Source: Neisseria leonii (GTDB lineage: Bacteria; Pseudomonadota; Gammaproteobacteria; Burkholderiales; Neisseriaceae). Taken from it: a DNA stretch of 64,000 nucleotides. Position numbers and translations under genes: made by a program. Positions 8,076 to 62,755 of the stretch are shown one piece after another. Within the stretch, counting starts at the first letter, position 1; each line of letters starts with the position of its first letter. The notes under the pieces were generated by a model, which was not told where the DNA came from, ran no database searches, and worked only from the letters and a program-made list of their open reading frames with translations. The stretch spans positions 1,426,001 through 1,490,000 of the forward strand of contig NZ_CP145606.1 of the NCBI RefSeq assembly GCF_028776105.2, in the 5' to 3' direction.

Positions 8076-8078
8076 GAT

Positions 8079-12120: not shown

Positions 12121-12126
12121 CCAAAA

Positions 12127-12936: not shown

Positions 12937-12942
12937 CCACAA

Positions 12943-13017: not shown

Positions 13018-13854
13018 ATGAGTATGAAAACCTTATCGATTCTTTTTGTACGCATAATCATAAAGAAAAGGTTTTTAATCGCGTTTTTTATTAGTTGTGG
13101 CTATTTATTGCTGTCTCTGTATTTTAAATGGGATTTATTCCTGGGGATTGGAGAGGATGTTTTTGGAAAGACTGGGGGAGAATTTTTTAGGGCGAGTGGA
13201 GGAGATTGGAGTGCTTATTTGACGGCAGGGTTAACGTTGTTGAAATTGTTACTTATTGTTCTAGCCCTTTCTTTTCTGGTGGCAATAGTCATTGATTTTC
13301 TTAGTTGGCCACGATGTTGTAAAATCATTGCACGTTATGGAGAACGTGCGGATGCATTGATGGAAATGACTTCTGAGATTGGTAATCCCAACCGTGAGGA
13401 GCATAACAAAATCTTTCGTTGTATGTTTTCGTTTGTTGATGTGCATGGAAAAATGCATAAAAACTATTTTTTGAAGTCTAGCGATATTCCTTTGCCTACG
13501 CAAAGTCGCGTAGTGCCCACTCATCCTAAAGACAAGTTTGTGCGCTATCCAAAGCTCGGGGAAAAATTTGAGGTATTGTATTTAAAGGGCTTAGAAGACT
13601 GGCCGATAATTTTAAATACAGGCGATAGTGAATTCGCTCGTCATATCCAAGAGGAACACCGGCAAAAATTTATCCGGCAATTAAGTGAGCGTGTGAGTAA
13701 GCTGAAAATCCTTGTAGATGCGGATCCCCTCAATCCCGAGCGACAAAAAATTTATCAGCAAGCAGAGCAAGACTTACACAATTATCAGCAATTTGGTACA
13801 GAGCCGATGTTGATAGAAAAAGTAGGAGAACTCAAGTTTAAATCAAATCCATAG
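13018..13854 (+). CDS. membrane protein of unknown function, tandem paralogue 3
   Basis: A 278-residue protein, the longest of the set because the stretch between the two helices (about residues 18-37 and 70-98) is expanded with a glycine-rich loop (GIGEDVFGKTGGEFFRASGG). The downstream part (YGERADALMEM, MFSFVDVHGK, FVRYPKLGEKFEVLYLKG, YQQAEQDLHNYQQFG) follows paralogue 2 closely. The start codon ATG at 13018 has GAGGGG upstream. A decayed copy of its first 50 codons follows directly. No known function. The strong conservation of the C-terminal 50 residues suggests either a shared partner or gene conversion. Confidence 0.8.
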   Translation: MSMKTLSILFVRIIIKKRFLIAFFISCGYLLLSLYFKWDLFLGIGEDVFGKTGGEFFRASGGDWSAYLTAGLTLLKLLLIVLALSFLVAIVIDFLSWPRCCKIIARYGERADALMEMTSEIGNPNREEHNKIFRCMFSFVDVHGKMHKNYFLKSSDIPLPTQSRVVPTHPKDKFVRYPKLGEKFEVLYLKGLEDWPIILNTGDSEFARHIQEEHRQKFIRQLSERVSKLKILVDADPLNPERQKIYQQAEQDLHNYQQFGTEPMLIEKVGELKFKSNP

Positions 13855-13861
13855 CCGCAAA

Positions 13862-13928
13862 CCTGTCTCAAATATGTCTCTCTCGCTAGACTTCCTGAAT
13901 ATGAATGGTCATATTGGGCGGATGGAAT
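13862..13928 (+). promoter_or_regulatory. decayed leader repeat before the pseudogene copy
   Basis: ACCTGTCTCAAATATGTCTC, CGCTAGACTTCC, and TGAATATGAATGGTCATATT match the leader blocks of paralogues 2 and 3 with more changes. This shows that the fourth unit was once complete at its 5' end. Confidence 0.4.
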
Positions 13929-14078
13929 ATTAACCTTATCGATTCTTTTTGCCCGCATCATCATAAAGAAAAAGTTATTGATCGCATTTTTTATCAGTTG
14001 TTGTTGCTTATCGATTTCTCTATATTTTAAATGAGATTGATTTCTGGGGATTGGAAAGGATATTTTTGGAAAGAATTT
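13929..14078 (+). pseudogene. truncated fourth copy of the paralogue family
   Basis: The stretch reads LTLSILFARIIIKKK, LIAFFISCC and SISLYFK in one frame, matching the N-terminus of paralogue 3 (LSILFVRIIIKKR, LIAFFISCG, LSLYFK). The ATG has become ATT, the tryptophan codon after LYFK is TGA, and the similarity stops after TTTTTGGAAAG where a REP element begins. Only about 50 codons remain. Confidence 0.7.
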
Positions 14079-41970: not shown

Positions 41971-42837
41971 TCAGTCTTGACGCAGCTGGCCGATACCGTC
42001 CACTTCGATTTCCACGCGGCGGTTCGGTTGCAGACAGGCGATTTCCTGCTCGCGCGGCAGCGTGGCGGCACACTCTTTGACCGGATAGCGTTTGCCCAAG
42101 CCCTGCGCGCTCATGATGCCGACCGGTACACCGCGCGACACCAGATAGCGGCGTACGGTTTCGGCACGGCGCATCGACAGCGCGTCATTGTAGGCATCGC
42201 TGCCTTTGCGGTCGGTATGGCCGATGATACGGATGGCGTTGATGCGCTCGAAACGCTTAACGTCTTCGGCAAAACGGTCGAGTTTGGCATAGCCCTCGGG
42301 CAACATATCGCTGCTGCCGCTCTTATCGAAGGCAAACAGCGCATCGGCGCCCAAAGTCAGCCGCTGGGTAGATGATTTTTCCGATACCGGGCCTTTGGGC
42401 GGGCAGACGGCATCTTTCGGATATACCGGCTTCCAATAGAAGCTGCGGGCGAATTTATCTTTGTCGTAAATAACTTTGAACTGGCAGGTGGTCACATCGG
42501 CCACGTTCGCCGTATTGTCGGGATCCTTCGGCACACCCGGGGTATGGAAGTGGAACAGATAATCCCACTCGCGTACATTGAACATGCCTTCATCGTAATG
42601 CGGACGGCCGATCAGCTTGTACAGCTCGTCTTTCGTCATACCCGCTTTGATGTTAACCAATTCATCGGTGGTCGGGAACGTACCGCGCTTATTGTTGAAC
42701 GTCAGCGAATATGGTTCGGGGAAAACAGGTTCGTCTGTCGTACCGTCGGCACGGACATCACTCTTGGTGGCACAAGCAGCCAGCAGACTGACCGCCAGCA
42801 GGGTCGCGCCTGTTTTCCAGAATTTAATGGATTTCAT
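41971..42837 (-). CDS. tpgA: TpgA-like lipoprotein: SmpA/OmlA-type domain plus OmpA C-terminal domain
   Basis: A 288-residue envelope protein. The lipobox is LLAAC with the acylated cysteine at residue 22. Residues about 60-105 (VNIKAGMTKDELYKLIGRPH) look like the SmpA/OmlA (BamE-like) fold. The C-terminal third is a peptidoglycan-binding OmpA domain: RIIGHTDRKGSDAYNDALS, RRAETVRRYLVSRGV and QPNRRVEIEVDG. This two-domain build directly downstream of a trimeric autotransporter is that of TpgA, which in Acinetobacter Tol 5 binds AtaA and peptidoglycan. It starts 94 bases after the adhesin stop. That it tethers this adhesin is inference. Confidence 0.85.
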   Translation of the reverse strand: MKSIKFWKTGATLLAVSLLAACATKSDVRADGTTDEPVFPEPYSLTFNNKRGTFPTTDELVNIKAGMTKDELYKLIGRPHYDEGMFNVREWDYLFHFHTPGVPKDPDNTANVADVTTCQFKVIYDKDKFARSFYWKPVYPKDAVCPPKGPVSEKSSTQRLTLGADALFAFDKSGSSDMLPEGYAKLDRFAEDVKRFERINAIRIIGHTDRKGSDAYNDALSMRRAETVRRYLVSRGVPVGIMSAQGLGKRYPVKECAATLPREQEIACLQPNRRVEIEVDGIGQLRQD

Positions 42838-42931: not shown

Positions 42932-45900
42932 TTACCATTGGTAACCCACAGCCGCAGTGGCACCGAAGTGGCCGCGCGAATTGCCGGAAGCCGTACCTTT
43001 GATAATCCAGTTACCGCCGTCTGAAATGCTCGAATAGCCGACTGCATAACCGGTCGCACCACGGTACACACCGCCGCCGACAGCCATCATGCTCTTGCCC
43101 GGCAGATAGGCCTGCGGCAGACCGGCTGTGGCCAAAGCTTGCGCCACACCGGCTTTGGCATCGGCATTGACTTCGTCAATACGGTTGCTGATACCTTGTG
43201 CCAGGCCTTTCAACTGACCGACATTCACCGCATCGGTATCCGCCACACCCGGCGCCACATTGGTGATGCGGTTGCCGCCGTTGTTCAGACCGCTGCCCGT
43301 CAGGCTCACAGGGGCTGCACCGTTGCTGCCGCCGATGGTGATGCCGTCTGTATTGACGGTCGTGTTGCCTGCAGTAACGGTATCCGCCGTTACGCTGCCC
43401 ACTTTCACATCTTTGGCAAGCTGAACTTCCAAAGTACCGTTACCATCAGCTTTGACATTGATGTTGCCAGCAGCCGATTGGAAGGCAGCCGATTGGTCTT
43501 TATCCACGCCCTCGCCTTTGACAGTAACTACGCTGTTGAGCTTATGACGGTTTAGGGTATCACTGTTGTTACCTGTGAAGATTAAGCCATCGTTTAGGTT
43601 GGCTACTTCTTGGGTAACAGACTTGGTTGGGTCTTGTGGGTCTTTGGTCTCATAGACAAGACGAGTTGTACCGTCTTTACCTGGTAGACCATTGACACCA
43701 TTTGTACCATCAACACCTTGCGCACCATCAGCACCTTTTAGGGTGAGACCGTTTGCACCGTCTTTACCGTTCAAGCCGATAGAGCCGTCTTTGCCGTTAA
43801 TCACAACCGCTGAGCCGTCTTTACCGTTTACGCCGATAGTACCATCAACGCCGTCTTTGCCTGGTTCGCCTTTTTCGCCAACTTGGATATTATCGGCGGT
43901 TAGGTCGCCTTTGGTGGCAAAGGTGATTTTGCCGTCAGCTTCTTGCTTCACAGTCAAGTTCTTGCCAGCAACCAATTCAACGGTTTCGCCAGATTTAATC
44001 AGCTCATCGTTACCTGAGACTTTTTCACCGCCATCGGTGGCTGATGATTTTAAGGTAAAGCCAGAGTTGTTGATGGCATCAGCCACAGTCTTAGCATTTA
44101 CCAGCTTGTTCTCATCAGCAGCATCAGGCGTGGTTACCTTGCCGTCTGTATTGGTCAGCGGTGTAGTGTTGGCTTTGATTTCGCCGTTGTCGCCTTTGGT
44201 GATGGTTGTGCCATCGGTATTGACGCTCAAATCAAAGATTTTCGCACCGCCTGCTGTACGACCTGAGTCGTCCACTTTCACCGAGCCGTCTTTTGAGGTT
44301 ACTTCTTCGCGAGAAGCTGCAACCGCTGTGTTCAGCTGGCTGACATTGACCGCATCATTCGGAGCTGTGCCATCAGCAACATTGGTAATCTTCACGGCAT
44401 TGCCGTTGGTATCACCTACTTTCAGGTTGCCGTTGCCGTCGTTCGTGATAGACGGATTATTGGCAGCGTCTTTTGGACCAAATGACACTTTGTCAAAGTT
44501 CACATCACGCTTGGTTTCCACTTTATAAGTGGTTGAACCGTCTGCGTTCACGGTTGGGATAACGGTGATGTTATCGCCCTCAACCACTTTGGTGGTGGCA
44601 GCCGCCGCAGCTTGTTTGAGCTGGTCTTCGGTCGCTGCTTGTCCGCTGACGATGTTGTCAGGATTCCAAGTGGTGTTGGTCAAGCCGCCCACTGTGCCTT
44701 TGTTGCCGTCGATGGTTACAGGATTGTCGCCGCCCACGGTCAAGCCGTCTTTGGTCAATTTGCTGCCACCAATCGTCAAGCTACCATCTTTGGTCAAATC
44801 AACATCTTTGTTGAGACCATAAGTGATGTTTGCACCATCACGGGTTACATTTAAGTTGTCTTTGGCTTTAAAGGTTACGGTATCAGCTGGGTTGATTAGC
44901 TCTTTACCGTCTGTGCCTTCGGCTGCCAAGTTCCAACCAGAGTTGTTGATGGCGTTAGCGATGTCGCCAGCAGTTGCCAAGGCATTGGCAGCGGCAGGTG
45001 TGTTTACTTTGCCGTCTGTATTGTTGGTCAATTCGCTGGTAACGGCTGCAATATTACCCTTGTCATCAACTTTTACAGTTGTGCCGTCAGTTTTGGCAGC
45101 AACGGTGTAAGTGGTTGAACCATCTGTATTGGTTTCAGGGGTAACGGTTACACCTTGGTCGCCTTGAACCTTAGTGGTCGCAGCAGCAGCGGCTTTTTGT
45201 AGGTCGCCCACATTCACTGCGTTTTTCAACACATCACCAGAAGCATTGGCAAGTTCAACTTTGTTGCCGCTTGCATCTTTTAATCCACTGTCCAAGTTTT
45301 GGATTTGGATTGGTGATACGGTTGTGCCGTTCACAGAACCAAGTTTTAAGTTGTTGCCGTTTGCCACAAGCATTGGACCGTTATTGATGATAAGTCCGTC
45401 TTTAGTCAGAGCGGTTTCACCAATCTTCAATGAGCCAGCATCAGTTAGGTCAATGTCTTTGTTGAGCTTCACGGTCAGTTTGTCTGTACCATCAGCTTCA
45501 ACGCTGATATTGCCAGCAGCTGACTGGAAGGTCTTCGCCGCATCTTTATCAACGCCTTCACCCTCAATGGTTACCACGCTGTTTAGCTTATGACGGTTTA
45601 GGGTATCGCTGTTGTTACCTGTGAAGATTAAGCCATCGTTTAGGTTGGCTACTTCTTGGGTAACAGACTTGGTTGGGTCTTGTGGGTCTTTGGTCTCATA
45701 GACAAGACGAGTTGTACCGTCTTTACCTGGTAGACCGTTTGTACCATTTGTACCATCAACACCTTGTGCACCGTCAGCACCTTTTAGGGTTAAGCCGTTT
45801 GCACCGTCTTTACCGTTCAAGCCAATAGAGCCGTCTTTGCCGTTAATCACAACCGCTGAGCCGTCTTTACCGTTTACGCCGATAGTACCATCAACGCCGT

Positions 45901-48900
45901 CTTTGCCTGGTTCGCCGTTTTGACCTGGTTCGCCTTTTTCGCCAACAGTGATGTTGTTGTTCAGAGCAAAGCGGATTTCGTTATCAGCCACGGTGGTAAC
46001 AATGTTTTTGTCGGTGCTGGTGAAATTCACCGTTTGACCAAGGTTCACATTGTCTTCTTTGGCATTGCCTGCCAAGGCAGAGTTATCCGCGGTGATGTTA
46101 AAGCCTTTTTCAACCAAGTTTTGTGAAGCGGTTTTCAAGTCGCCCACATTCACGGCGTTGTTTAAGGTTTCACCAGTGGCGTTAGCAAGTTCAACTGGGT
46201 TGCCAGCTGTATCTTTTAATCCACTATCCAAGTTTTGAATTTGGATTGGTGATACGGTTGTGCCATCAACAGAACCTAGTTTTAAGTTGTTGCCGTTACT
46301 CACCAACATCGGACCGTTATTGATGATAAGTCCGTCTTTGGTCAATGCAGTGTCGCCGATTTTGAGTGAACCGTCTTGGGTCAAATCAACATCTTTATTT
46401 AGACCATAAGTGATATTTGCACCATCACGGGTTACATTCAAGTTGTCTTTGGCTTTAAAGGTTACAGTATCGGCTGGGTTGATTAGCTCGCTGTCAGGTG
46501 TGCCTTCGGCAGCAAGTTTCCAGCCAGAAGCATTGATTGCTTCGGCAACATCGCCAGCAGTAACTAGGCTGGTCGGTGTCGTTGCAGTTGATTTACCATC
46601 GTTATCGGTTGTGATATCACTGGTAACCGCTTTCACCTCGCCTGTTGTTGGGTCTTTGGTGATGGTGGTGTTGTCGGTGTTTACGCTCAAATCGTACACA
46701 TTCGCACCAGCCGCATTTTTGGTGGTGGTTACGGTTACTGATTTGTCGTCAGATTTCACTTCCTCTTTTGAAGCAGCCACTTCGGTCTTCAACTGCGATA
46801 CATTGACTGCATCGTTGTCGTCTGTGCCAGCTTCTAGGTTGGTGATTTTCACAGGGGCAGCCGTGCCGTCATCGCCAACTTTGCCGACTTTAAAGTTGCC
46901 ATTGTTGTCGTGGGTTAAGATTGGACCGTTGTTAATCATCAAGCCGTCTTCGGTCAGCAGGGTATCACCCAGCTTCACGCTGCCGTCTTTGGTCAAATCA
47001 ACATCTTTGGTCAGCTGAACTTTCAATTTGCCATTGTCGTAGTTCACGCCAATGTTGTTGTCAGTTAAGCTGTCTTTGTCCGCACCGCCGATGATGTCTA
47101 GCTGTTCGTTCAGTTTTTTGCTGATGATTTGGTTGTCATCGCCTTTGAACTTCAAGCCGTCATTGAGTGTTGCCACTTCTTCTTTTTCACCGTTTGGTTT
47201 TTCGTAAACGATACGGGTTTGACCGTCTTCACCGTTTTGACCGTCTTTGCCGTCAAGGGCAGGTTGGGCTTTTTCAACTTGCAGTTTAACTTGACCGTCT
47301 TTGCCGTCTTTGCCGTCTACGCCGTTAAATACGATGGCATCAGGGGTCAAGGTCAAGCCGTCTTTGCCGTCTTTGCCGTTCACGCCAATTTGACCGTCTT
47401 TGCCGTCTTTACCGCCAACGCTGATTTGGTCATTCAAGCCAAATTGGATTTGGTTGTTTGACACGGTGGTAACAATGTTGCCGTCAGGGTCGGTGAATTT
47501 CACGGTTTCGCCGAGATTCACATTGTCATCAGTGCCGTTGTCGGCTGCGATGTTAAAGCCTTTTTCAACCAAGTTTTGTGAAGCGGTTTTCAAATCGCCC
47601 ACATTCACTGCGTTGTTTAAGGTTTCGCCAGTGGCGTTAGCAAGTTCAACTGGGTTGCCGTTCGCATCTTTTAATCCGCTGTCCACATTTTGGATTTGGA
47701 TTGGAGAAGCTTCACCGTTGTCATTTACTGAACCCAATTTCAAGTTGTTGCCGTTTGACACAAGCATCGGACCGTTGTTGATGATTAAGCCATCTTTGGT
47801 CAGAGCGGTTTCGCCAATGGTCAAGCTACCATCTTTGGTCAAATCGACATCTTTATTTAGACCATAAGTGATGTTTGCACCATCACGGGTTACATTCAGG
47901 TTGTCTTTGGCTTTAAAGGTTACGGTATCAGCTGGGTTGATTAGCTCTTTACCGTCTGTGCCTTCGGCTGCCAAGTTCCAACCAGAGTTGTTGATGGCGT
48001 TAGCGATGTCGCCAGCAGTTGCCAAGGCATTGGCAGCGGCAGGTGTGTTTACTTTGCCGTCTGTATTGTTGGTCAATTCGCTGGTAACGGCTGCAATATT
48101 ACCCTTGTCATCAACTTTTACAGTTGTGCCGTCAGTTTTGGCAGCAACGGTGTAAGTGGTTGAACCATCTGTATTGGTTTCAGGGGTAACGGTTACACCT
48201 TGGTCGCCTTGAACCTTAGTGGTGGCTGCTGCGGCGGCTTTTTGTAGGTCGCCGACATTAACAGCGTTGTTTAACACATCACCTGAAGCATTTGCCAAAT
48301 CAACGGTATTGCCAGCTGTATCTTTCAATCCGCTATCCAAGTTTTGGATTTGGATTGGTGATACGGTTGTGCCGTCAACAGAACCAAGTTTTAAGTTGTT
48401 GCCATTTGCCACAAGCATTGGACCGTTATTGATGATAAGTCCGTCTTTGGTCAGAGCAGTGTCGCCGATTTTGAGTGAACCATCTTGGGTCAAATCGACA
48501 TCTTTGTTCAAGCGGACATTGAAGTTTTTGCCGTTGGTGTCGTTCAATCTGTCTTGCACCACGGTGATATTGCTATCGCCGTCTACGCTCTCTTCTTTGG
48601 CGATTTGAGCTTTGGTTTCGTCAGACAAATCAACGGTGTATTCACGGGTTTTGGCATCTTCGTTGTCGTTTGGTGTAACGGTCAAGGCAGAGCCTGCCGC
48701 CACTTTGGTATCCCAAGCGTCCACTTTGTAGATGGTTTGACCGTCTGTGCCAGCCTCGCTACGCACGGTGGTGTTTTTGCCGTCTGCAACTTCTGTCTTC
48801 GCTGCTTTGAGCTGTTTCACATTCACCGCATCGTTGTCGTCCGTACCCTCGGCAAGGTTGGTGATTTTCACAGGTTGGGCTTGACCGTCATCGCCAACTT

Positions 48901-51900
48901 TGCCAACTTTAAAGTTGCCATTGTTGTCGTGGGTCAAGATTGGACCATTGTTAATCATCAAGCCGTCTTCGGTCAGCAAGGTATCACCCAGCTTCACACT
49001 GCCGTCTTTGGTCAAATCGACATCTTTATTCAAGCCATAGATGATGTTGCCATTTTCACGGCTGACATTTAAGTTGTCTTTGGCTTTGAAAGTTACGGTA
49101 TCGGCTGGGTTAATCAGCTCAGTGCCGTCTGTACCCTCTGCCGCCAGTTTCCAACCGCTTTCGTTAATCGCATTGGCAACATCGCCAGCGGTGATAAGGC
49201 TAGATGACGTGGTCGCCGTGGCTTTGCCGTCATTATTGGTGATACCGCTGGTAACCGCTTTCACCGCACCTGTTGTTGGGTCTTTGGTGATGGTGGTGTT
49301 GTCGGTGTTCACGCTCAAATCAAAGACATTCGCACCGTCAGCATTTTGCGTGGTAACCACAGTTACTGATTTGTCGTCAGATTTCACCACTTCTTTAGAC
49401 GCAGCAACGGCTTTATTCAACTGCGATACATTGACTGCATCGTTGTCGTCTGTGCCAGCTTCCAAGTTGGTGATTTTCACAGGGGCAGCCGTGCCGTCAT
49501 CGCCAACTTTGCCAACTTTAAAGTTGCCTTGGTTGTCGTGGGTCAAGATTGGACCGTCATTGATGATTAAACCATCTTTGGTCAATGCAGTGTCGCCGAT
49601 TTTGACTGAGCCGTTATCACCCAAATCCACATCGTTGTTCAAAGTAACTTTGTACTCTTTACCGCCTGTGGCGTTCGTACCATTTTCGGCAACGGTGATA
49701 TTGCCCTCACCAATCACGCTTTCTTCTTTGGCGATTTGGTCTTTGGTCGCTTGGCTTAAATCGATGGTGTAGTTGCGGGTTTTGTCGGTGTCGTTATCGT
49801 TTGATGACACAGTTACCGCCGCACCGTCAGCCGCTGCCACTTTGGTATCCCAAGCGTCCACGGTGAAGGTTTTGGCAAAGGTATCTGGGTCTTCGGTTGA
49901 AGTTACCGCCGTATTTTTGCCGGCTTCCACCACGGTTCTTGCACCTTTGAGCTGTCTTACATTCACTGCATCTTCATCATTTTCACCATCGAAAACATTG
50001 GTGATTTTGACAGGTTCGCCCTTATTGCTGCCCACCATCAGGTTGCCGTCGCCATCATGCTGAAGTCTCACCATACCGCCGTCAAGCGTTACGTTATCAA
50101 AATCTACTTGACGCTTGATTGAGTAGGTGATGTTTGAACCTTCGCGTACCACAGATAAGTTTCGATCACCTGTGTTGAAACTTACGGTATCGCCCGGGTT
50201 AATTATCTCGCCAGCATCGAAATTCGGTGGATACAACATATCCTGAACTTTGACTTTCCAACCGGAGTTGTTAATCGCATTGGCGACATCGCCGGCGGTT
50301 GCCAACGCCCCAGTGGTGGCAGGGGGTGCTACTTTGCCGTCTGTTACGGTCAGCGGTGTAGTATTTGCAGAAATCTGACCGCTTGCAACCTTAATCGTGG
50401 TGTTGTCGGTATTGACATCAAAGGTAATGTTTTGACCGTCTGCACGAGCGGTGGTGGCGTTACCATTGACAAAGTTCACATCGTTATTGCCTTGGTTGAT
50501 GGTTTCAACCGTTTGACCATTTACCGAAGTGGTGAATGACTGCACCGCCGTGTCGGCTTTGGCTAGGCTTTCTTTGGCAGCTTGCGATAAATCCAGCTCA
50601 AAGTTGGTTACATCAGCCGCACCTTCTTTTGCCGTGCCTTTGTTGGCAACGGTCAATTTATCGGTGGCTGAGGTTACTTTTGCCGAGGTGTCTTTTGCCG
50701 AGACGGTATAGACAGGGTTGCCGTCTGTGCCTTGGCTTGGGGTTACGGTTACATTTTCGCCCGCTTGAACTTCGGTTTTGGCGGCTTTTAACTGTTTGAC
50801 ATTGACTGCGTCAGTCGGGTTTACGCCGTCTGCCACGCCAGTGATGGTTTTATCGCCTGCGTTAATGCCGTCTGAATTGATGGTTACAGGTCCGATTTTG
50901 GCTTCGTTGGCGGTTACTTTTGGCGTATTTAAGCCGTCTTTATTGAGCGAGCTTCCGCCAATGGTCAATGAGCCTGTGTCGCCCAAATTGACATCTTTAT
51001 TGAGTTTCACGGTCAAAGTGTCGTTGCCGTCTGCCACCACGCCGATATTGCCATCGGTCAGATTGGCTGCATTGGTCGCATTGCCTTTGACATTGACGGT
51101 TTCGCCCAATTTGCGGGTTACATTAGTGCCTGTGTCGCCGGCAAAGGTAATGCCTTGGTTGTCCACCTTATCTTTGGCATCGACACCTTTTTGAATGTCT
51201 TCTTTGGTTTTGGTAGACAAATCAACGGTGTAAGCACGGGTTTTGGCGTTGTCGTCATTGTTTGGCGTTACCGTGATTGCGTCAGAGCCTGTGGCGGTGG
51301 TATCCCACGCATCGACTTTGTAGATTTTCTGACCATTTGCCCCATCACGACTGCTGACGGTGGTATTTTTGCCGTTTTCCAGCTCGGTTTTGGCGGCGTT
51401 TAGCTGTTTGACATTGACTGCGTCAGTCGGCGCTGTGCCGTCTGCCACATTGCTGATTGGCTTATTGCCAGCGTTAATGCCGCCGTTATTGATGGTTACG
51501 CCACCGACTTGCAATGAGCCGTTGTCGGTCAAATTGACATTGTTATTTAGGCTGACTTTAAAGTCTTTACCGCCTGTGCCGTTTGTGCCGTTGTCGGTAA
51601 CGGTAATATTATCGCCTGCCGATACGCTTTCTTCTTTGGCAAGTTGGCGTTTGGCATCGGCGGACAAATCCACGGTGTAGTTGGTTACGGTTGCTCCGTC
51701 TACGGTGGTTTCGCTGCCTTTTTGGACATCAATTAAGTTTGAGCCAGAGACAGAGGCTGAGGTGTCTTTGCCGTTTGCCACTAATTGACCTTGGTCGTTA
51801 ATGGTTACGGTTGTGCCGTCTACATTGACTTTAAAATCAAGGGTGCTGGTTTTTTGGTCGTTGCTTAAACCTGTCTCGATGCTGACCGATTTATCGCTGG

Positions 51901-54871
51901 ATTTAAAGTTGACAATATCTCTTGGCTGGACATTATCCACTTTTGTGCCGTCTTTTTGCAGCTCCCAGCCTGCCCCCAACACTTCGGCAACCGCATACAG
52001 CTGCGAGCCGTTGATGGCATCGGTGGAAGTGGCGGAGATTTGACCTGCGGCGACATTTTGGATACGGCGTTCCATACCGTTTGCCCCCACGGTTACCACA
52101 CCTTGCGGGCTATGACCAGCAAATTTGCCGAAAGTCAAATCGCCGACTTGTTCGCCATTGACCGTGGCACTGACAACGCCTGTCTCCACTTTACTCATAC
52201 CGCCCGTGGTGTTTGTGCCTAAGGCTTGGACATCTTTGCGGTCGTTTCTGTAACCGCCTTTATCAACTTGATGATTTATCCAAGTGCCTGAGGCTGCGTC
52301 CCAAGTTGCCCCAGAGCCGTTGGCAGAGCTGTCATCACCCAAATAGACCGAGTTGGCAATCGTGCCACGCAAGTAGCGAATTTCATCACCCGTGCCTACG
52401 GTATCAATACCACTACCAAACACCAGAGTTTTCGGGGTTAAGATACGGTTGTGGCTACCGATGGAAATCGAGCCAGAAGAATCCCTATCACCACTAAAGC
52501 TGTTATCAGAGTCTAACTGACCGTTATAATAACTCACTTCAGTACCAATGATATTTTGGTTACCCATCACAAAGGCATTGGCAGAGGTTTCGCCGATGGC
52601 ATTATTATTACCGACGCTGTAACTGCCGTCGCCACGCACATCGTTAGGGTCGCCGAATGCCCCTGCGTTTTTACCGCTGACTCGGTTACCCACACCCACC
52701 GCAATGGACTGCGAGCCTGTGGCTCGGGCGTTCGGACCGATGGCGATAGCACGCTCGCCTGTGGCTTGGGCAGCTGTGCCGACTGCGATAGAGTCTGAGC
52801 CAATGTAGGTTTGACTCCTGTAATCCCGTATACCGGCGACCGCCCCTGTACCGATGGCAATCGAGTTCTTACCGTAACCGGCAGCTTCCGAGCCTGCTGC
52901 GAATGCGTTGGCACTCGCTGCTTTGGATTTGTTACCGATTGCCGTGGCATTGGCTGCGGAGGCTTGGGAAGCAACCCCCAAAGCAACAGCGGCTTGACCG
53001 GATGCAGCAGAAGCCACCCCTAAAGCAGTAGAAGCAAAACCTGAGGCATTAGCACGGGTACCAAAGGCAGCTGCAAAATCACCCGCTGATTTAGATTGTG
53101 TCCCCACAGCAGCCGAAGCTCCGCCACTTGAAGTAACTTTTTTGAAATCACCTTTTGTAATGGTGTCGCCTGTTAAATTTTTATAATTGTTTGCAGACTG
53201 AGTGTCGACCAATTTATCCATATCATCAGCACCGATAGCGATCGATGAATGACCAGACGCAATCGAATCTGCACCCAAGGCAGTAGATTGGAAACCTGAA
53301 GCTTTTGCAAAACGACCAATCGCAACAGCTTGTGCGTTATCTTCGCTCGTCATCGTTGATGTGCCAGCGGTCGCTCCTGTACCGATAGAAACAGAGTTTT
53401 GACCGTAAGCCTCAGATTGTACGCCAGCCGCCAATGAATTAATACCTGTCGCTTTGGCTGCTTTACCAACTACTACAGTTGATTCACCAGAGGCAACAGA
53501 ACCAGTACCGATGGCGATCGCATCTTGGGCGGAAGAGTTGGCAGATGAGCCAATGGCGGTCGCCCGTTGACCGCTGGCGGTGGTATTGCCACGAGTGGTT
53601 GTTCCCAAGGCAAGGGCATTTTCCCCTGATGCCAAGGCATTTTTACCCAGCACCGCCGCCGAATTGCCTGTGGCTTGTGCGTTTTGACCCACGGCAATGC
53701 TGTCCGCTCCCGTTGCTTTGGCAATATTACCCACCGCAACCGATTGTGCATTCGCTTGGGTTTCCGAACCTAACGCCACCCCGTTTTTACTCGCATTGGC
53801 TTTATAACCAATTGCACTTGCGTTAATCTCTGTGCCTGTTGCTTCACGCCCCATTGCAATCGCACTTTGACCTGAAGCGGTGGCTGATGTTCCCACGGCA
53901 ATGCTATGGCTGTCGGTGGCTTGTGCAGATACCCCTGCGGCAACCGCTTTATCGCCTTTTGCCCCACCGATACCATCAACCGCATCTAAGTTGGTGGCAT
54001 TACCCGCCTGAGCCGAGCCTGTACCATTGGTGTGGAAGTAGTTTTGTTTGTCAGTGCCTGCTGAGTTGTTAATGGCTTGTTGTAAAGCGTATAGCTGACT
54101 ACCATTGACCGCATCGGTGCTGGTGGCAGAGACTTGACCTGCGGCAACATTGATGATTTGGCGTTCGCCACCTGCTTTACCTACCGAGAGTACGCCTTTT
54201 GATGGGCTACCTTGACCTGCAAAGGTATAGTTTTTGCCGTTGACAGTCATACCTGTCTCGGCAGTAGCAGCACGGTCGGTACTTTCATTACCCAGCACCA
54301 CGCTGTTGGCTTGGCTGGTGGTGATATTGCGACCTAGGGCAAAAGTGTTGGTTTGTCCGACATTGACATTACGACCGATGGCATAGGCATCTTGAGCCGA
54401 TGCGGTGCTATCGTAACCGAATGCCACAGCATCTTTGCCTGTGGCTTGGTTATTGATACCCAAAGCGATGACACCACGGTTGATTTGGTTGTTAAAACCG
54501 TATGCCAACGCACCGTTAGAATCAGGGCTGTTGGTAATGATATTGTTATAACCCACCGCAGATGATGAGTCGGCACTGGCTTGGTTACGCTGACCGATAG
54601 CGACCGCTAAGCGGTTGGTGGTGTTGCGAAAACCCATAACCACCGAGTTATGTCCTGCCGTGTTGTTTGAACCAACGACATTGATGACATCGCCATTGGC
54701 GGTGTTTTCTGTACCGATGACATTGACCTTTGACGGGGTGTTTTCGTCATAAGCAGCATTGCCTGTGGCTTCAATGATAGTACCTTTAAAAGCGTTTTGA
54801 TCACGGACATCATTATATATATTGACCAAATACCACAAGCGGTGAGGTCGCATCGGCAGTTTGCACGACAT
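42932..54871 (-). CDS. giant trimeric autotransporter adhesin, body and membrane anchor (out of frame with its signal peptide)
   Basis: The open frame of 3,979 residues is nearly all of a YadA/Hia-type adhesin. Genuine coding starts near residue 19 (YNDVRDQNAF); the first residues MSCKLPMRPHRL are an out-of-frame reading of the signal-peptide region. Order: YadA head repeats of the AxAxGxxSxAxG type (about 30-900); neck and stalk modules with DAVNVKQLK-type necks repeated many times (950-3,880); collagen-like GKDG/GVDG/GTNG runs near 2,480-2,560, 2,980-3,060 and 3,660-3,730; and a YadA beta-barrel anchor ending TAAVGYQW. It should display trimeric fibres on the outer membrane. Base composition is AT-richer than its neighbours, and long DNA repeats are present. 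Confidence 0.9.
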   Translation of the reverse strand: MSCKLPMRPHRLWYLVNIYNDVRDQNAFKGTIIEATGNAAYDENTPSKVNVIGTENTANGDVINVVGSNNTAGHNSVVMGFRNTTNRLAVAIGQRNQASADSSSAVGYNNIITNSPDSNGALAYGFNNQINRGVIALGINNQATGKDAVAFGYDSTASAQDAYAIGRNVNVGQTNTFALGRNITTSQANSVVLGNESTDRAATAETGMTVNGKNYTFAGQGSPSKGVLSVGKAGGERQIINVAAGQVSATSTDAVNGSQLYALQQAINNSAGTDKQNYFHTNGTGSAQAGNATNLDAVDGIGGAKGDKAVAAGVSAQATDSHSIAVGTSATASGQSAIAMGREATGTEINASAIGYKANASKNGVALGSETQANAQSVAVGNIAKATGADSIAVGQNAQATGNSAAVLGKNALASGENALALGTTTRGNTTASGQRATAIGSSANSSAQDAIAIGTGSVASGESTVVVGKAAKATGINSLAAGVQSEAYGQNSVSIGTGATAGTSTMTSEDNAQAVAIGRFAKASGFQSTALGADSIASGHSSIAIGADDMDKLVDTQSANNYKNLTGDTITKGDFKKVTSSGGASAAVGTQSKSAGDFAAAFGTRANASGFASTALGVASAASGQAAVALGVASQASAANATAIGNKSKAASANAFAAGSEAAGYGKNSIAIGTGAVAGIRDYRSQTYIGSDSIAVGTAAQATGERAIAIGPNARATGSQSIAVGVGNRVSGKNAGAFGDPNDVRGDGSYSVGNNNAIGETSANAFVMGNQNIIGTEVSYYNGQLDSDNSFSGDRDSSGSISIGSHNRILTPKTLVFGSGIDTVGTGDEIRYLRGTIANSVYLGDDSSANGSGATWDAASGTWINHQVDKGGYRNDRKDVQALGTNTTGGMSKVETGVVSATVNGEQVGDLTFGKFAGHSPQGVVTVGANGMERRIQNVAAGQISATSTDAINGSQLYAVAEVLGAGWELQKDGTKVDNVQPRDIVNFKSSDKSVSIETGLSNDQKTSTLDFKVNVDGTTVTINDQGQLVANGKDTSASVSGSNLIDVQKGSETTVDGATVTNYTVDLSADAKRQLAKEESVSAGDNITVTDNGTNGTGGKDFKVSLNNNVNLTDNGSLQVGGVTINNGGINAGNKPISNVADGTAPTDAVNVKQLNAAKTELENGKNTTVSSRDGANGQKIYKVDAWDTTATGSDAITVTPNNDDNAKTRAYTVDLSTKTKEDIQKGVDAKDKVDNQGITFAGDTGTNVTRKLGETVNVKGNATNAANLTDGNIGVVADGNDTLTVKLNKDVNLGDTGSLTIGGSSLNKDGLNTPKVTANEAKIGPVTINSDGINAGDKTITGVADGVNPTDAVNVKQLKAAKTEVQAGENVTVTPSQGTDGNPVYTVSAKDTSAKVTSATDKLTVANKGTAKEGAADVTNFELDLSQAAKESLAKADTAVQSFTTSVNGQTVETINQGNNDVNFVNGNATTARADGQNITFDVNTDNTTIKVASGQISANTTPLTVTDGKVAPPATTGALATAGDVANAINNSGWKVKVQDMLYPPNFDAGEIINPGDTVSFNTGDRNLSVVREGSNITYSIKRQVDFDNVTLDGGMVRLQHDGDGNLMVGSNKGEPVKITNVFDGENDEDAVNVRQLKGARTVVEAGKNTAVTSTEDPDTFAKTFTVDAWDTKVAAADGAAVTVSSNDNDTDKTRNYTIDLSQATKDQIAKEESVIGEGNITVAENGTNATGGKEYKVTLNNDVDLGDNGSVKIGDTALTKDGLIINDGPILTHDNQGNFKVGKVGDDGTAAPVKITNLEAGTDDNDAVNVSQLNKAVAASKEVVKSDDKSVTVVTTQNADGANVFDLSVNTDNTTITKDPTTGAVKAVTSGITNNDGKATATTSSSLITAGDVANAINESGWKLAAEGTDGTELINPADTVTFKAKDNLNVSRENGNIIYGLNKDVDLTKDGSVKLGDTLLTEDGLMINNGPILTHDNNGNFKVGKVGDDGQAQPVKITNLAEGTDDNDAVNVKQLKAAKTEVADGKNTTVRSEAGTDGQTIYKVDAWDTKVAAGSALTVTPNDNEDAKTREYTVDLSDETKAQIAKEESVDGDSNITVVQDRLNDTNGKNFNVRLNKDVDLTQDGSLKIGDTALTKDGLIINNGPMLVANGNNLKLGSVDGTTVSPIQIQNLDSGLKDTAGNTVDLANASGDVLNNAVNVGDLQKAAAAATTKVQGDQGVTVTPETNTDGSTTYTVAAKTDGTTVKVDDKGNIAAVTSELTNNTDGKVNTPAAANALATAGDIANAINNSGWNLAAEGTDGKELINPADTVTFKAKDNLNVTRDGANITYGLNKDVDLTKDGSLTIGETALTKDGLIINNGPMLVSNGNNLKLGSVNDNGEASPIQIQNVDSGLKDANGNPVELANATGETLNNAVNVGDLKTASQNLVEKGFNIAADNGTDDNVNLGETVKFTDPDGNIVTTVSNNQIQFGLNDQISVGGKDGKDGQIGVNGKDGKDGLTLTPDAIVFNGVDGKDGKDGQVKLQVEKAQPALDGKDGQNGEDGQTRIVYEKPNGEKEEVATLNDGLKFKGDDNQIISKKLNEQLDIIGGADKDSLTDNNIGVNYDNGKLKVQLTKDVDLTKDGSVKLGDTLLTEDGLMINNGPILTHDNNGNFKVGKVGDDGTAAPVKITNLEAGTDDNDAVNVSQLKTEVAASKEEVKSDDKSVTVTTTKNAAGANVYDLSVNTDNTTITKDPTTGEVKAVTSDITTDNDGKSTATTPTSLVTAGDVAEAINASGWKLAAEGTPDSELINPADTVTFKAKDNLNVTRDGANITYGLNKDVDLTQDGSLKIGDTALTKDGLIINNGPMLVSNGNNLKLGSVDGTTVSPIQIQNLDSGLKDTAGNPVELANATGETLNNAVNVGDLKTASQNLVEKGFNITADNSALAGNAKEDNVNLGQTVNFTSTDKNIVTTVADNEIRFALNNNITVGEKGEPGQNGEPGKDGVDGTIGVNGKDGSAVVINGKDGSIGLNGKDGANGLTLKGADGAQGVDGTNGTNGLPGKDGTTRLVYETKDPQDPTKSVTQEVANLNDGLIFTGNNSDTLNRHKLNSVVTIEGEGVDKDAAKTFQSAAGNISVEADGTDKLTVKLNKDIDLTDAGSLKIGETALTKDGLIINNGPMLVANGNNLKLGSVNGTTVSPIQIQNLDSGLKDASGNKVELANASGDVLKNAVNVGDLQKAAAAATTKVQGDQGVTVTPETNTDGSTTYTVAAKTDGTTVKVDDKGNIAAVTSELTNNTDGKVNTPAAANALATAGDIANAINNSGWNLAAEGTDGKELINPADTVTFKAKDNLNVTRDGANITYGLNKDVDLTKDGSLTIGGSKLTKDGLTVGGDNPVTIDGNKGTVGGLTNTTWNPDNIVSGQAATEDQLKQAAAAATTKVVEGDNITVIPTVNADGSTTYKVETKRDVNFDKVSFGPKDAANNPSITNDGNGNLKVGDTNGNAVKITNVADGTAPNDAVNVSQLNTAVAASREEVTSKDGSVKVDDSGRTAGGAKIFDLSVNTDGTTITKGDNGEIKANTTPLTNTDGKVTTPDAADENKLVNAKTVADAINNSGFTLKSSATDGGEKVSGNDELIKSGETVELVAGKNLTVKQEADGKITFATKGDLTADNIQVGEKGEPGKDGVDGTIGVNGKDGSAVVINGKDGSIGLNGKDGANGLTLKGADGAQGVDGTNGVNGLPGKDGTTRLVYETKDPQDPTKSVTQEVANLNDGLIFTGNNSDTLNRHKLNSVVTVKGEGVDKDQSAAFQSAAGNINVKADGNGTLEVQLAKDVKVGSVTADTVTAGNTTVNTDGITIGGSNGAAPVSLTGSGLNNGGNRITNVAPGVADTDAVNVGQLKGLAQGISNRIDEVNADAKAGVAQALATAGLPQAYLPGKSMMAVGGGVYRGATGYAVGYSSISDGGNWIIKGTASGNSRGHFGATAAVGYQW
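43533..43880. repeat. internal adhesin repeat A, copy 1
   Basis: About 345 bases nearly identical to 45577-45918. They encode the collagen-like block (GKDGVDGTIGVNGKDGSAVV and onward to LNDGLIFTGNNSDTLNRHKL). Only scattered base changes separate the copies. Confidence 0.85.
44783..45180. repeat. internal adhesin repeat B, copy 1
   Basis: About 400 bases almost identical to 47828-48225, encoding the stalk block from LNKDVDLTKDGSLTI back to the TKVQGDQGVTVTPETNTDGS neck-proximal region. Such long direct repeats favour recombination that changes fibre length. Confidence 0.85.
45577..45918. repeat. internal adhesin repeat A, copy 2
   Basis: Second copy of the collagen-like block at 43533-43880. 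This copy extends into an extra GEPGQNGEPGKDG segment. Confidence 0.85.
47828..48225. repeat. internal adhesin repeat B, copy 2
   Basis: Second copy of the stalk block at 44783-45180. Further, more diverged copies of the shorter unit with NNGPMLVSNGNNLKLGS recur near 46290 and 48410. Confidence 0.85.
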
Positions 54872-55127
54872 TGTTACCGCCCAAAATCAGCTGGTCGGCA
54901 TTGGTGGCTGTGCGGTAAGTAACGGCGTTTGCCTGTGATGCAAAGCCCAATGCTGCAAACACCGCCACTGCAAGCGGTGTGATTTTGAGAAATTTCACGG
55001 CTTTAACCGCAGTTGATGCCGCACTATTATTCACAGTGTTATTTTTACCCTGTGATTTCGCAAACTCTGCCACGGCAGTAAATGTGCCGGTGGCTTTGTT
55101 GAATACGACTTTATAAATATGGTTCAT
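54813..55127 (-). CDS. ESPR and signal peptide of the giant adhesin, ending at a frameshift
   Basis: A 104-residue frame starting at an ATG at 55127 with GGAG eight bases upstream. Residues 1-28 (MNHIYKVVFNKATGTFTAVA, EFAKSQGK) are the extended signal peptide region of type V autotransporters. A hydrophobic core (ITPLAVAVFAALGFA) and an ASQANA cleavage site follow. The mature part (VTYRTATNADQLILGGNNVV) runs to QYI and stops at TAA in a TATATATA tract. The next frame continues at once with YNDVRDQ, so this is the missing start of the adhesin. As written, only a short exported peptide would be made. Confidence 0.85.
   Translation of the reverse strand: MNHIYKVVFNKATGTFTAVAEFAKSQGKNNTVNNSAASTAVKAVKFLKITPLAVAVFAALGFASQANAVTYRTATNADQLILGGNNVVQTADATSPLVVFGQYI
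54814..54822. repeat. TA-dinucleotide tract at the adhesin frameshift
   Basis: TATATATAT lies exactly where the signal-peptide frame stops and the body frame takes over. One more TA unit, or two fewer, would join GQ-YI-YNDVRD in one frame. It could be a slippage switch, a fixed mutation or a read error. Confidence 0.6.
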
Positions 55128-55199
55128 AACATTCTCCGAATTTTCTGCAACCGGTTTAATCAAAAAATAAAACAATAAAAAAACTCTATCCGCAGGCCA

Positions 55200-55375
55200 T
55201 CTGAAAACGGTGCTTTGCACCGTTTCTGCGCAGCTGAAATGCGCACCGCGAGCTTCTCAGCGAAAACCGTAGGTCGGATTCCCGAATCCGCCGCTGCTTG
55301 TCGGTCTTACCGATAAATATCCGCCCTGTGCTTCCATTTGGTTTTATCGGATTCCGGAATCCGACCCAATATTGC
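55200..55375. repeat. DUS-hairpin and REP elements upstream of the adhesin
   Basis: GGCCATCTGAAAACGGTGC-TTT-GCACCGTTTCTGCGCAGCTG is a DUS-hairpin element with one DUS base changed (CCATCTGAA). REPs follow at about 55269 (GTAGGTCGGATTCCCGAATC) and 55343 (TTTTATCGGATTCCGGAATC). They lie between the adhesin start and the upstream AT-rich island. Confidence 0.6.
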
Positions 55376-55546
55376 CACCACTCTTTTTAGAGCAAGCGAC
55401 CACAAGGCAGACGAAAAACTCTGCCATTGTACGGATTCATCTTGTGCTGACAAGTAGTTACCATATCCTATGGGGTCAGGCGGTAACGCCGCCTGCTCCG
55501 CAAGCCATAGCAGTATGCATATTAATCTTTTTTTGATTTCAATCAA
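55307..55546 (-). CDS. doubtful small ORF in the AT-rich island upstream of the adhesin
   Basis: From a TTG at 55546 the minus strand is open for 79 codons (IEIKKRLICILLWLAEQAAL, PPDPIGYGNYLSAQDESVQW). About 60 codons look protein-like; the rest (GRIPESDK) are a translated REP. No ribosome site is seen. It may be a remnant of a small gene whose end was replaced by the repeat, or a structured leader RNA: the stem CAGGCGG/CCGCCTG at 55477-55495 lies inside. Confidence 0.2.
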   Translation of the reverse strand: MIEIKKRLICILLWLAEQAALPPDPIGYGNYLSAQDESVQWQSFSSALWSLALKRVVAILGRIPESDKTKWKHRADIYR

Positions 55547-55588
55547 TTAAAATAACGATTGTTCTTGTCAATCAGGGCAATAGGTCTA

Positions 55589-55597
55589 CCCCCCCCC
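55589..55597. repeat. nine-base poly-C/G tract upstream of the adhesin
   Basis: Nine C on the plus strand (G9 on the coding strand of the adhesin) lie about 460 bases before the adhesin ATG. They are about 18 bases upstream of a TTGACA (55566-55571, minus) that could be a -35 box. Tracts of this length are mutable in Neisseria and may tune transcription. A matching -10 is not convincing. Confidence 0.5.
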
Positions 55598-55739
55598 GCA
55601 GGTTTACATTTTTTGACTTAATCATGCACTATTTTCCGCGCAATCTGTAACTTTTTTGAAACATTCGCACACAGAAATGCCCAACCGGCATATTTTCTAC
55701 CAAACACGCCTGCCGAAACAGAAAGCGTATGAGTCCGCC

Positions 55740-56190
55740 CGTGTCGGATTCTTGAATCCGATCGGCCGTTTGGGCTGGCGAAGCGGATAGGAGGCGGGGG
55801 GCATGTCGGATACAGAGTATCCGACCTACATGGGTTGTTTCGGCCGTTCAAATTGCCGAATCAGAACGTAGAGACGTAGGTCGGATTCTTGAATCCGACA
55901 TGGACGGTTACAGCCGTTCGGGCTGGCGAAGCGGATAGGAGGTGGGGGCATGTCGGATACGGAGTATCCGACCTACATGGGTTGTTTCGGCCGTTCAAAT
56001 TGCCGAATCAGAACGTAGAGACGTAGGTCGGATTCTTGAATCCGACACGGACGGTTACAGCCGTTTGGGCTGGCGAAGCGGATAGGAGGCGGGGGCATGT
56101 CGGATACGGAGTATCCGACCTACATGGGTTGTTTCGGCCGTTCAAATTGCCGAATCAGAACGCAGGGCGGATTCTTGAATCCTACTTTCC
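55740..56190. repeat. tandem array of about 140-base REP-bearing units
   Basis: Three near-identical units start at about 55744, 55881 and 56028, and a partial fourth at 56167 (spacings 137, 147 and 139). Each holds TCGGATTCTTGAATCCGA, a GGGCTGGCGAAGCGGATAGG block, GTCGGATACGGAGTATCCGA with CCTAC, and GGTTGTTTCGGCCGTTCAAA. The region between the island and exbD has no gene; 56191-56362 carries further single REPs. Confidence 0.8.
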
Positions 56191-56362
56191 CCGATACTGC
56201 GGCATACCGCCGTTTGTGGCGGATATCCGGCCTACTGCTGAAATTAAAGAATAGAAAGATTGTCGGAGACGGGGTTTGTCGGATTCAAGCATCCGGCCTA
56301 CGCAGGGAATATCCGGCCTGCACGCTGATGCCCGGGGCGTGCAGGCGGAAGCGGGAAGCGGT

Positions 56363-56788
56363 TCAGTCGGCGCGTTTTTCGGTTACGAAGCCGACTTTGG
56401 CCAAGCCCGCGTCTTTGGCCATGTTCAGGGCTTGGGCGACGGCATCGTAGGCGGTGTCTTTGTCGGCATCGATGGCGAGAACGGTATCGGGGTTGGCGGT
56501 TTTGGCCTGGACGAAGGTTTGCGCCAAGGCTTCCGGCGAGGTCTGTTTGTCGCCCAGATAATAGGCTCCGTCGCGGTCTATGGTGAGCCGCAGGGGGTCT
56601 TTCGGTTCTTCTGCGGGCTTGGCCTGATCGGAAGCGGTGGGCAGGGAAATGGGTATGGTGTGGGTGAGTACGGGCATGGTGATCATAAAGACAATCAGCA
56701 AGACCAGCATCACATCGACCAGCGGGGTTACGTTGATTTCGCTCATCGGCGCATCATCGCCGTGGCCGTTCAGGGATCCGAATGCCAT
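56363..56788 (-). CDS. exbD: TonB energy-transducing system subunit ExbD
   Basis: A 141-residue inner-membrane protein that, with ExbB, uses proton flow to drive TonB. It begins MAFGSLNGHGDDAPMSEINV, with the single helix LVDVMLVLLIVFMITMPVL (about residues 23-42) that holds the conserved proton-path aspartate D25, and a periplasmic domain after it. The frame is open further upstream, but that part overlaps exbB in another frame. It lies four bases after exbB. Confidence 0.95.
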   Translation of the reverse strand: MAFGSLNGHGDDAPMSEINVTPLVDVMLVLLIVFMITMPVLTHTIPISLPTASDQAKPAEEPKDPLRLTIDRDGAYYLGDKQTSPEALAQTFVQAKTANPDTVLAIDADKDTAYDAVAQALNMAKDAGLAKVGFVTEKRAD

Positions 56789-59716: not shown

Positions 59717-59822
59717 AATCAAACGGCAAAAAGCGGATTATCTGCCCGAAACCCCCGGCCGACAAGCGCAGCCATGTCTAGTCGTCCGCCGCTCCGCCCA
59801 ACCTCAAACACCCGCTGCTTTA

Positions 59823-60190
59823 ATGCAGGTCGGATTCTGGAATCCGACACCGTAACGGCAGGCACGGCATAACGGATTGGATACAGGCGGGATTGCGGTC
59901 AGCGGGTTTGTCGGATACGGGTATCCGGCCTACGTCAAGGCCGTCTGAAACGGGGCGGCAGGGGTCGGGAATTTGTCCGCAACCACCACGCCATTCAATC
60001 TCAAATATCCGCCGCTTTAATGTAGGTCGGATTCTGGAATCCGACACCGTAACGGCGGACGCGGCATAACGGATTTCATACGGCGGGATTGCGGTCAACG
60101 GGTTTGTCGGATACAAGTATCCGACCTGCGTCAAGGCCGTCTGAAACGGGGCGGCAGGGTTCGGGCATTTTCCTGCAACCGGCAAACGCA
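59823..60190. repeat. 197-base tandem duplication with REPIN and DUS
   Basis: Two copies start at about 59823 and 60020 with a period of 197. Each holds AGGTCGGATTCTGGAATCCG, a TAACGG block, GTTTGTCGGATAC-loop-GTATCC, GTCAAGGCCGTCTGAAACGG and GGCGGCAGGG. The second palindrome differs in the loop (ACGGGT against ACAAGT). It fills the gap between rarD and priA. Confidence 0.8.
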
Positions 60191-62400: not shown

Positions 62401-62755
62401 CGTGTCGGATTCGGGAATCCGGCCTACGCCTGAAATTCAAAAATCCGCCCCACGCCTCCTAACCGAACGCAAACAACCCGTGTAGGTCGGATACTCCGTA
62501 TCCGACACCGCCGCCCGCTTTTCCCCCTGATTCAACAGTCCGAACGGCTGTAACCGCTCGTGTCGGATTCGAGAATCCGACCTACGCCTGCTGAAATTCA
62601 AAAATCCGCCCCACGCCTCCTAACCGAACGCAAGCAATCCGTGTAGGTCGGATACTCCGTATCCGACACCGCCGCCCGCTTTTCCTCCTGCTTCGGCAGT
62701 CCGAACGGCTGTAACCGCTCGTGTCGGATTCGAGAATCCGACCTGCGCCCGATTT
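62401..62755. repeat. 161-base tandem duplication of REP units before tsf
   Basis: TGAAATTCAAAAATCCGCCC recurs at 62431 and 62592 with about 160 bases of near-identity: CACGCCTCCTAACCGAACGC, GTGTAGGTCGGATACTCCGT with ATCCGACACC, GAACGGCTGTAACCGCTCG and TGTCGGATTCGAGAATCCGA. It fills the gap between priA and the tsf terminator. No gene is seen. Confidence 0.8.

What the first reader, a model, noticed from the sequence alone, without database searches (positions are those of the whole stretch)
54790..55127. Giant adhesin split from its signal peptide exactly at a TA tract: candidate phase switch
The ESPR/signal-peptide frame ends in TAA inside TATATATAT, and the 3,960-residue body continues directly in the next frame with no lost residues. 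Frame arithmetic from 55127 and 54871 shows that +1 or -2 TA units restores one protein of about 4,060 residues. The rest of the 12-kb frame has no other break, which argues against long-term decay. Slippage in repeat tracts controls many Neisseria surface genes, but a tract this short (nine bases) would be unusual; a recent fixed mutation or sequencing error are the alternatives.
Basis: partly seen in the sequence, partly recalled or inferred. Interest (0 to 1): 0.75.

Follow-up and report, generated by a model that had tools for sequence, protein, structure and literature searches.

The report
Giant adhesin gene broken at TA repeat
A very large surface-adhesin gene in a Neisseria-like bacterium is cut in two by a reading-frame break at a short TA repeat, most likely an ordinary slippage mutation that turned the adhesin off rather than a purpose-built genetic switch.

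Summary
On the minus strand, a 104-residue ESPR/signal-peptide frame (ATG at 55127) ends in TAA at 54813-54815, inside nine alternating T/A bases (54814-54822). A 3,979-codon YadA-type body (54871-42932) runs unbroken in another frame, followed by an intact TpgA-like gene. Codon usage favours the signal-peptide frame up to the tract, the only perfect mono- or dinucleotide repeat of 8 bp or more in the 12,196-bp gene, so slippage is the likely origin. The "phase switch" reading is weak: the tract is below Neisseria phase-variation cut-offs, a 118-genome study saw no variable dinucleotide tract, no other readable ESPR locus of the genus has it, and I found no sister isolate. In 46 genomes, 15 of 62 readable trimeric-adhesin genes (in 8 genomes, this one included) are frame-broken at scattered places; only this one breaks at such a repeat. 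N. lactamica shows repeated, partly inactivating mutation of a giant ESPR adhesin during carriage. Best reading: recent silencing of a giant adhesin by one event, ordinary for the family. Better phase-variation candidates are G/C runs: all three ESPR genes of this genome carry one of only 19 runs of nine or more (here G9, 470 bp upstream). Raw reads would decide.

The parts
54813..55127 (-). ESPR plus signal peptide and the first residues of the passenger; 104 residues, stop TAA at 54813-54815
   Evidence: PF13018 58.1 bits
54814..54822 (-). nine alternating T/A bases at which the frame changes
   Evidence: codon-usage change point
42932..54871 (-). body of the trimeric autotransporter adhesin: YadA heads, stalks, collagen-like part, YadA anchor; 3,979 codons without a stop; the ESPR signal is not in this frame
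41971..42837 (-). TpgA-like partner gene (BamE domain plus OmpA domain), intact, 94 bp downstream of the adhesin
   Evidence: (NF047726 133.6 bits, below its cut-off of 350)
55589..55597 (-). G9 homopolymer on the coding strand, 470 bp upstream of the start codon; alternative candidate hypermutable tract

Best explanation
This is a giant ESPR-type trimeric autotransporter adhesin (type Vc secretion) next to a TpgA-like partner gene on the same strand. A slippage-type insertion or deletion in the gene's only mono- or dinucleotide repeat of 8 bp or more has put a stop behind the signal peptide, so the body is no longer joined to an export signal and the adhesin is off. The loss is recent, or kept only in part of the population, because the other 3,960 codons are unbroken. 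It belongs to the scattered inactivation that these long, exposed genes undergo in the genus. It is not a dedicated switch, although a slippage change can revert at a low rate. Shown: the two frames, the place of the break, the intact body and the frequency of breaks in relatives. Inferred: slippage as cause, absence of surface protein, and recency.
For: Frames and domains. Break at the tract. The predicted protein P0002 in the large protein set is 3,968 residues, shorter than the body ORF, and lists no ESPR domain (its sequence was not fetched). Survey: 111 ESPR hits in 46 genomes. Of 62 gap-free trimeric-adhesin genes that I could follow, 47 are in one frame to the anchor and 15, in 8 genomes, are frame-broken. 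Break stretches of all 15 were scanned; only the window's break is at a perfect mono- or dinucleotide tract of 8 bp or more. In the relative with the closest TpgA-like gene (76%, G041), the adjacent giant adhesin is also split once, at a place without such a repeat. N. lactamica: a ~10-kb ESPR/YadA-type gene without phase-variable tracts took 12 mutations in 8 volunteers during carriage, five of them persisting and cutting the predicted protein by 84-93% (PMC6232127, section 7 read). B. henselae: two of eight strains lack BadA because of frameshifts (PMC8859334, passages).
Against: The break coincides with the gene's longest mono- or dinucleotide run, unlike the other 14 broken genes, which is what a switch would also show. 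It sits just behind the signal peptide; [quoted passage not shown] The phasome paper itself notes siaD switching at G7, below its own cut-off, so short tracts are not excluded in principle. Recency is argued only from intactness; no close relative exists for a dN/dS test. The 15 broken genes come from only 8 genomes (four in G009), and some may be assembly errors.
Confidence: 0.62

Rival explanations
1. Translational phase switch: the TA tract changes length reversibly at high rate and turns the giant adhesin on and off.
For: Break exactly at the tract; body without another stop; position near the start of the ORF resembles the poly-G switch of Hag; adhesins and other outer-membrane proteins are among the phase-variable genes of Neisseria, and siaD can switch at a short G7 tract.
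Against: Tract of 4.5 units, below the cut-offs of 6 or 8; dinucleotide tracts found in Neisseria did not vary (PMC5953494; tracts this short were not examined there); tract absent from the other readable ESPR loci; in N. lactamica carriage all 11 switching loci had G/C tracts.
Confidence: 0.12
2. Sequencing or assembly error: the real gene is in one frame.
For: A single small difference in a repeat is enough, and reads are not available here. Another ESPR gene of the same genome (285031) shows two further frame breaks.
Against: Single-contig genome, completeness 100, contamination 0.11. Fourteen conserved window genes match family profiles essentially from end to end. The 12-kb body and the paralogue (open frame of 4,032 codons) are unbroken. 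Short TA runs are not a typical error source (recalled).
Confidence: 0.17
3. The working switch of this gene is transcriptional, through the upstream G9 run, and the TA break is a separate accident. This does not exclude the best explanation.
For: All three ESPR genes of the genome have one of only 19 G/C runs of 9 or more within -700 to +600 (0.034 expected, Poisson P about 6e-6, span chosen after seeing the data). G/C runs of 9 or more meet the cut-off used for Neisseria. G041 has C11 382 bp upstream.
Against: 470 bp from the start is outside the 200-bp promoter zone used in PMC5953494; nine is the shortest accepted length; promoter-like sites in 54700-56400 are no more than chance (2 found, 2.3 expected). 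It does not explain the frame break.
Confidence: 0.25
4. Recoding: ribosomes change frame at the tract, so the split gene is still translated as one protein.
For: No residues seem lost at the junction.
Against: By inspection only, no slippery heptamer or run of A that I recall as known; stop codons TAA TGA follow directly; 47 genes of the family in the genus, the own paralogue among them, are in one frame.
Confidence: 0.02

Closest known systems
L-hp (ARB05049.1) of Neisseria lactamica Y92-1009, PMC6232127 (section 7 read; passages elsewhere)
   Same: About 10-kb ESPR/YadA-type trimeric adhesin gene, no phase-variable tract, hit repeatedly by mutations of which five persisted and truncate it
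   Different: Other domains (tryptophan-ring, HiaBD2) and low GC; losses seen directly in human carriage; here one event, at a short repeat
Hag/MID of Moraxella catarrhalis, PMC1931440 (passages read)
   Same: Large adhesin with YadA-like repeats whose frame is disturbed near the start of the ORF
   Different: Poly-G tract with reported translational phase variation; here a TA run below the usual length and no evidence of variation
NadA of Neisseria meningitidis, PMC2791445 (search listing: title and start of abstract)
   Same: Adhesin of Neisseria with phase-variable expression (that it is a trimeric autotransporter is recalled)
   Different: The repeats act through spacing of distal promoter elements and the NadR repressor, not inside the ORF
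BadA of Bartonella henselae, PMC8859334 (passages read)
   Same: Giant trimeric adhesin lost by frameshift in two of eight strains
   Different: Other bacterium and gene; no short repeat at the break is mentioned in the passages I saw
AtaA-TpgA pair of Acinetobacter sp. Tol 5, PMC13082670 (search listing: title and start of abstract)
   Same: Trimeric adhesin with a TpgA partner (its adjacent gene and peptidoglycan binding are recalled)
   Different: The partner here is below the TpgA model's cut-off

Membership tests
Trimeric autotransporter adhesin (type Vc) | C-terminal YadA anchor with YadA stalk and head repeats | tested here: met
   PF03895, PF05662, PF05658 over their cut-offs in the body
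Trimeric autotransporter adhesin (type Vc) | N-terminal export signal in the same frame as the body | tested here: not met
   ESPR (PF13018) is present but in another frame. The gene is a broken member; 47 of 62 readable genes of the family in the genus have both in one frame
SSR-driven phase-variable (contingency) locus of Neisseria | Tract at or above the length known to be hypermutable | tested here: not met
   4.5 dinucleotide units against cut-offs of 6 or 8; the upstream G9 run just meets the G/C cut-off
SSR-driven phase-variable (contingency) locus of Neisseria | Tract kept at the same place in relatives | tested here: not met
   No TA or AT tract of 4 or more units within 600 bp downstream of the start in the other 106 ESPR loci read, two of them read for less than 600 bp
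SSR-driven phase-variable (contingency) locus of Neisseria | Tract length varies within or between isolates | not testable with these tools
   No sister isolate (own protein first; the other 119 of the 120 rows listed, out of 1,862 hits, are at most 57% identical); no reads
TpgA (peptidoglycan-associated partner of a trimeric adhesin) | Match to NF047726 over its cut-off | tested here: not met
   133.6 bits against 350; OmpA and BamE domains present, so it is called TpgA-like only
Programmed frameshift gene | Slippery heptamer or homopolymer before the stop | tested here: inconclusive
   None seen by inspection of the sequence; no dedicated program was run

The most novel reading that the evidence does not exclude
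A dinucleotide (TA) translational switch right behind the ESPR of a giant trimeric adhesin, kept at the threshold of instability, would be, against what PMC5953494 reports, a first dinucleotide contingency locus in Neisseria and might work as a slow, population-level on/off control of a ~4,000-residue fibre.
Probability: 0.1. Interest if true: 0.55.

Novelty: new member of a known kind. Interest (0 to 1): 0.25.

Why it matters
The single case is ordinary: a giant adhesin gene silenced by a small indel. The survey around it is more useful. About a quarter (15 of 62) of the readable trimeric-adhesin genes in this genus sample are frame-broken, and 14 of the 15 away from mono- or dinucleotide repeats of 8 bp or more. 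That fits the idea that neisseriae often lose giant adhesins by plain mutation, as seen in N. lactamica carriage, and it warns that a frame break near a repeat should not be called phase variation without variability data. If the TA tract did vary, it would widen the repeat classes used in Neisseria.

Tried and rejected
Sister isolates: the protein search listed the window's own protein and then only distant ones (120 of 1,862 hits listed, 2,450 candidates scored). RpoC shows that the nearest held genome is 96% identical (44 of 46 genomes had a match). A shared TA tract in relatives was sought and not found. Other broken adhesins as repeat-driven switches: rejected, because their break stretches hold no perfect mono- or dinucleotide tract of 8 bp or more. 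Results that lean the other way: the broken gene in G044 has a G9 run about 30 bases before the stretch in which its break can lie; G015:95550 and G041:1602748 have a (GC)4 tract elsewhere in the gene; the third ESPR gene of this genome holds a (TGC)4 tract, which cannot shift the frame, and a C12 run upstream of its breaks. Two loci whose break falls at an N gap (G011:C15, G055:C162) were left out of the 15. Forty-seven of the 111 ESPR hits were left out of the 62: 4 had no sequence fetched, and the rest look like other type V proteins by their start letters (recalled, not tested), are cut by contig ends or are remnants. That a gene ends in an anchor was judged by eye from its last residues; three genes counted as intact have unusual ends. 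Of the 15 broken genes, 6 (window, G041:355041, G057, G009:25500, G015:477239, G044) were seen to have one break only and a body that runs to the anchor; the others have more breaks or were not read to the end. Promoter scan: no more hits than chance. Orthology of the adhesin itself with G041 rests on the neighbouring TpgA-like gene and the well-kept anchor; the aligned pieces shown are 30-64% identical.
Full report
What is there. The feature lies on the minus strand. A frame that begins with ATG at 55127 encodes 104 residues with an ESPR and signal peptide (PF13018, 58.1 bits) and ends in TAA at 54813-54815, followed directly by TGA. In another frame an ORF of 3,979 codons from the ATG at 54871 runs to 42932. 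It carries YadA head (five matched stretches), stalk (ten), a collagen-like stretch and a YadA anchor. Ninety-four bases downstream is an intact 288-codon gene with BamE and OmpA domains whose best named match is TpgA, below that model's cut-off. Upstream, on the same strand, are an ExbB/TolQ-type gene and a TonB-type gene.

Where the frame changes. Stop codons alone allow the change anywhere in positions 241-312 of the gene. I scored the two frames by codon usage learned from the body and from the intact paralogue at 218414 (7,893 codons). The score of the signal-peptide frame reaches 27 nats at the codon at position 306 and turns only inside the tract. The tract is nine alternating bases, ATATATATA on the coding strand. 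It is the only perfect mono- or dinucleotide tract of 8 bp or more in the 12,196-bp gene; the next longest are A6 runs and three-unit dinucleotides. TATATATA occurs once in the window and at one other place in the 2.2-Mb genome, 404485, inside an open frame of 273 codons. So the break is at the most slippage-prone place of the gene by this measure, and slippage is the likely cause.

Is it a switch? A phase-variable tract should be long enough, kept in relatives and variable. Length: the Neisseria phasome study of 118 genomes used cut-offs of at least 9 for G/C and 6 or 8 units for dinucleotides, and reported that alignments of the dinucleotide tracts found showed no change in repeat number (PMC5953494, passages read). 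It did not examine tracts as short as this one, and it mentions siaD switching at G7, so the length argument is strong but not absolute. Conservation: I searched 46 genomes of the genus for ESPR (111 hits) and read 107 of them around the start. Besides the window gene, no locus has a TA or AT tract of four or more units in the first 600 bp (two were readable for only 179 and 523 bp); two have such a tract upstream. Variability: no second isolate was found, so it could not be tested.

How common are such breaks? Among the 111 hits, 62 trimeric-adhesin genes could be followed without a gap: 47 run in one frame to the C-terminal anchor and 15 are frame-broken. The 15 come from 8 genomes, four of them from G009. 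The first breaks lie from about 0.1 to 8 kb into the gene. The break stretches of all 15 were scanned; apart from the window's, none holds a perfect mono- or dinucleotide tract of 8 bp or more. Six of the 15, the window gene among them, show one break only and a body that runs to the anchor. A few may be assembly errors, in particular in G009 and G049, which have several breaks in repetitive parts. The relative with the closest TpgA-like neighbour (G041, 76%) has its giant adhesin split once, between codons 485 and 542, at a place without such a repeat. Giant adhesins in this genus are thus often silenced by plain indels. A parallel was seen directly in N. lactamica: a ~10-kb ESPR/YadA-type gene free of phase-variable tracts collected 12 mutations in 8 volunteers, five of them persisting and cutting the predicted protein by 84-93% (PMC6232127, section 7 read). 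In B. henselae, two of eight strains lack BadA because of frameshifts (PMC8859334, passages).

A better place to look for phase variation. The genome has 19 runs of nine or more G or C (hand count of the rows). All three ESPR genes have one within -700 to +600 of their start: G9 at -470 in the window gene, G11 at -265 in the intact paralogue, and C12 at +94 inside the signal peptide of the third. About 0.034 would be expected by chance (Poisson P about 6e-6, with the search span chosen after the fact). Across the 62 genes, 10 have such a run in this span (6 of 47 intact, 4 of 15 broken), with less than 700 bp of upstream sequence at 10 of the 107 loci read. The window's G9 run is short and 470 bp from the start, outside the 200-bp zone used in PMC5953494, so it is a lead and not a finding.

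Error. The genome is one contig with completeness 100 and contamination 0.11. Of 29 window ORFs that I chose for NCBIfam scans, fourteen conserved ones (HemL, fructose-bisphosphate aldolase, RpoB, RpoC, EF-Tu, NusG, a thiamine-type binding protein, GlmU, L1, PriA, EF-Ts, RarD, an ExbB/TolQ protein and a glycerophosphodiesterase) match a profile essentially end to end. The others had no match, or matches that do not settle the point, and this is not a full frameshift scan. The third ESPR gene has two breaks. I put an error at about one in six.

Working of the present allele. Ribosomes that start at 55127 stop behind the signal peptide. Starts within the body frame (ATG 54871, or the later start implied by the 3,968 residues of P0002, whose listed domains lack ESPR) give a body without the ESPR signal. 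I infer that no fibre reaches the surface from this allele, and that the long untranslated stretch could lower expression of the TpgA-like gene by polarity. Both are untested.

Verdict. The most probable reading is a recent slippage-type inactivation of a giant trimeric adhesin, a new example of a known kind. The switch remains possible at about one in ten and can be decided with raw reads.

Noticed in passing
L083 (G000:C1:217000-231500), gene at 1415-13330: Intact ESPR paralogue (3,971 codons from its ATG) with a G11 run 265 bp upstream and a nearly identical internal repeat of period 1,518 bp, a possible source of length variation.
   Followed up: partly
L084 (G000:C1:285031 onward): Third ESPR gene with a C12 run inside the signal-peptide codons, in frame across it, but with two further frame breaks some 0.5-0.6 kb into the gene.
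   Followed up: partly
L089 (G013), L132 (G049), L070 (G045), L131 (G003), L129 (G043): Long repeats upstream of ESPR genes in relatives: (TGCC)33 at -336, (TTAAC)9 at -124, (TACTACC)8 at -448, C21 at -200, C14 at -193. These look like real hypermutable tracts and deserve a study of their own.
   Followed up: no
L122 and L123 (G009:C1 near 25500 and 2207804): Two similar trimeric adhesin genes in one genome, both frame-broken in or near a collagen-like repeat region.
   Followed up: partly
window 55765-56162, 59799-60180, 62401-62750: Tandem arrays of about 147-196 bp units that contain GTCGGATTC/GAATCCGAC-type palindromes.
   Followed up: no
window 12001-14000: Stretch of low GC (39% against mostly 50-60% elsewhere) holding ORFs of 243 and 278 codons, perhaps acquired.
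   Followed up: no
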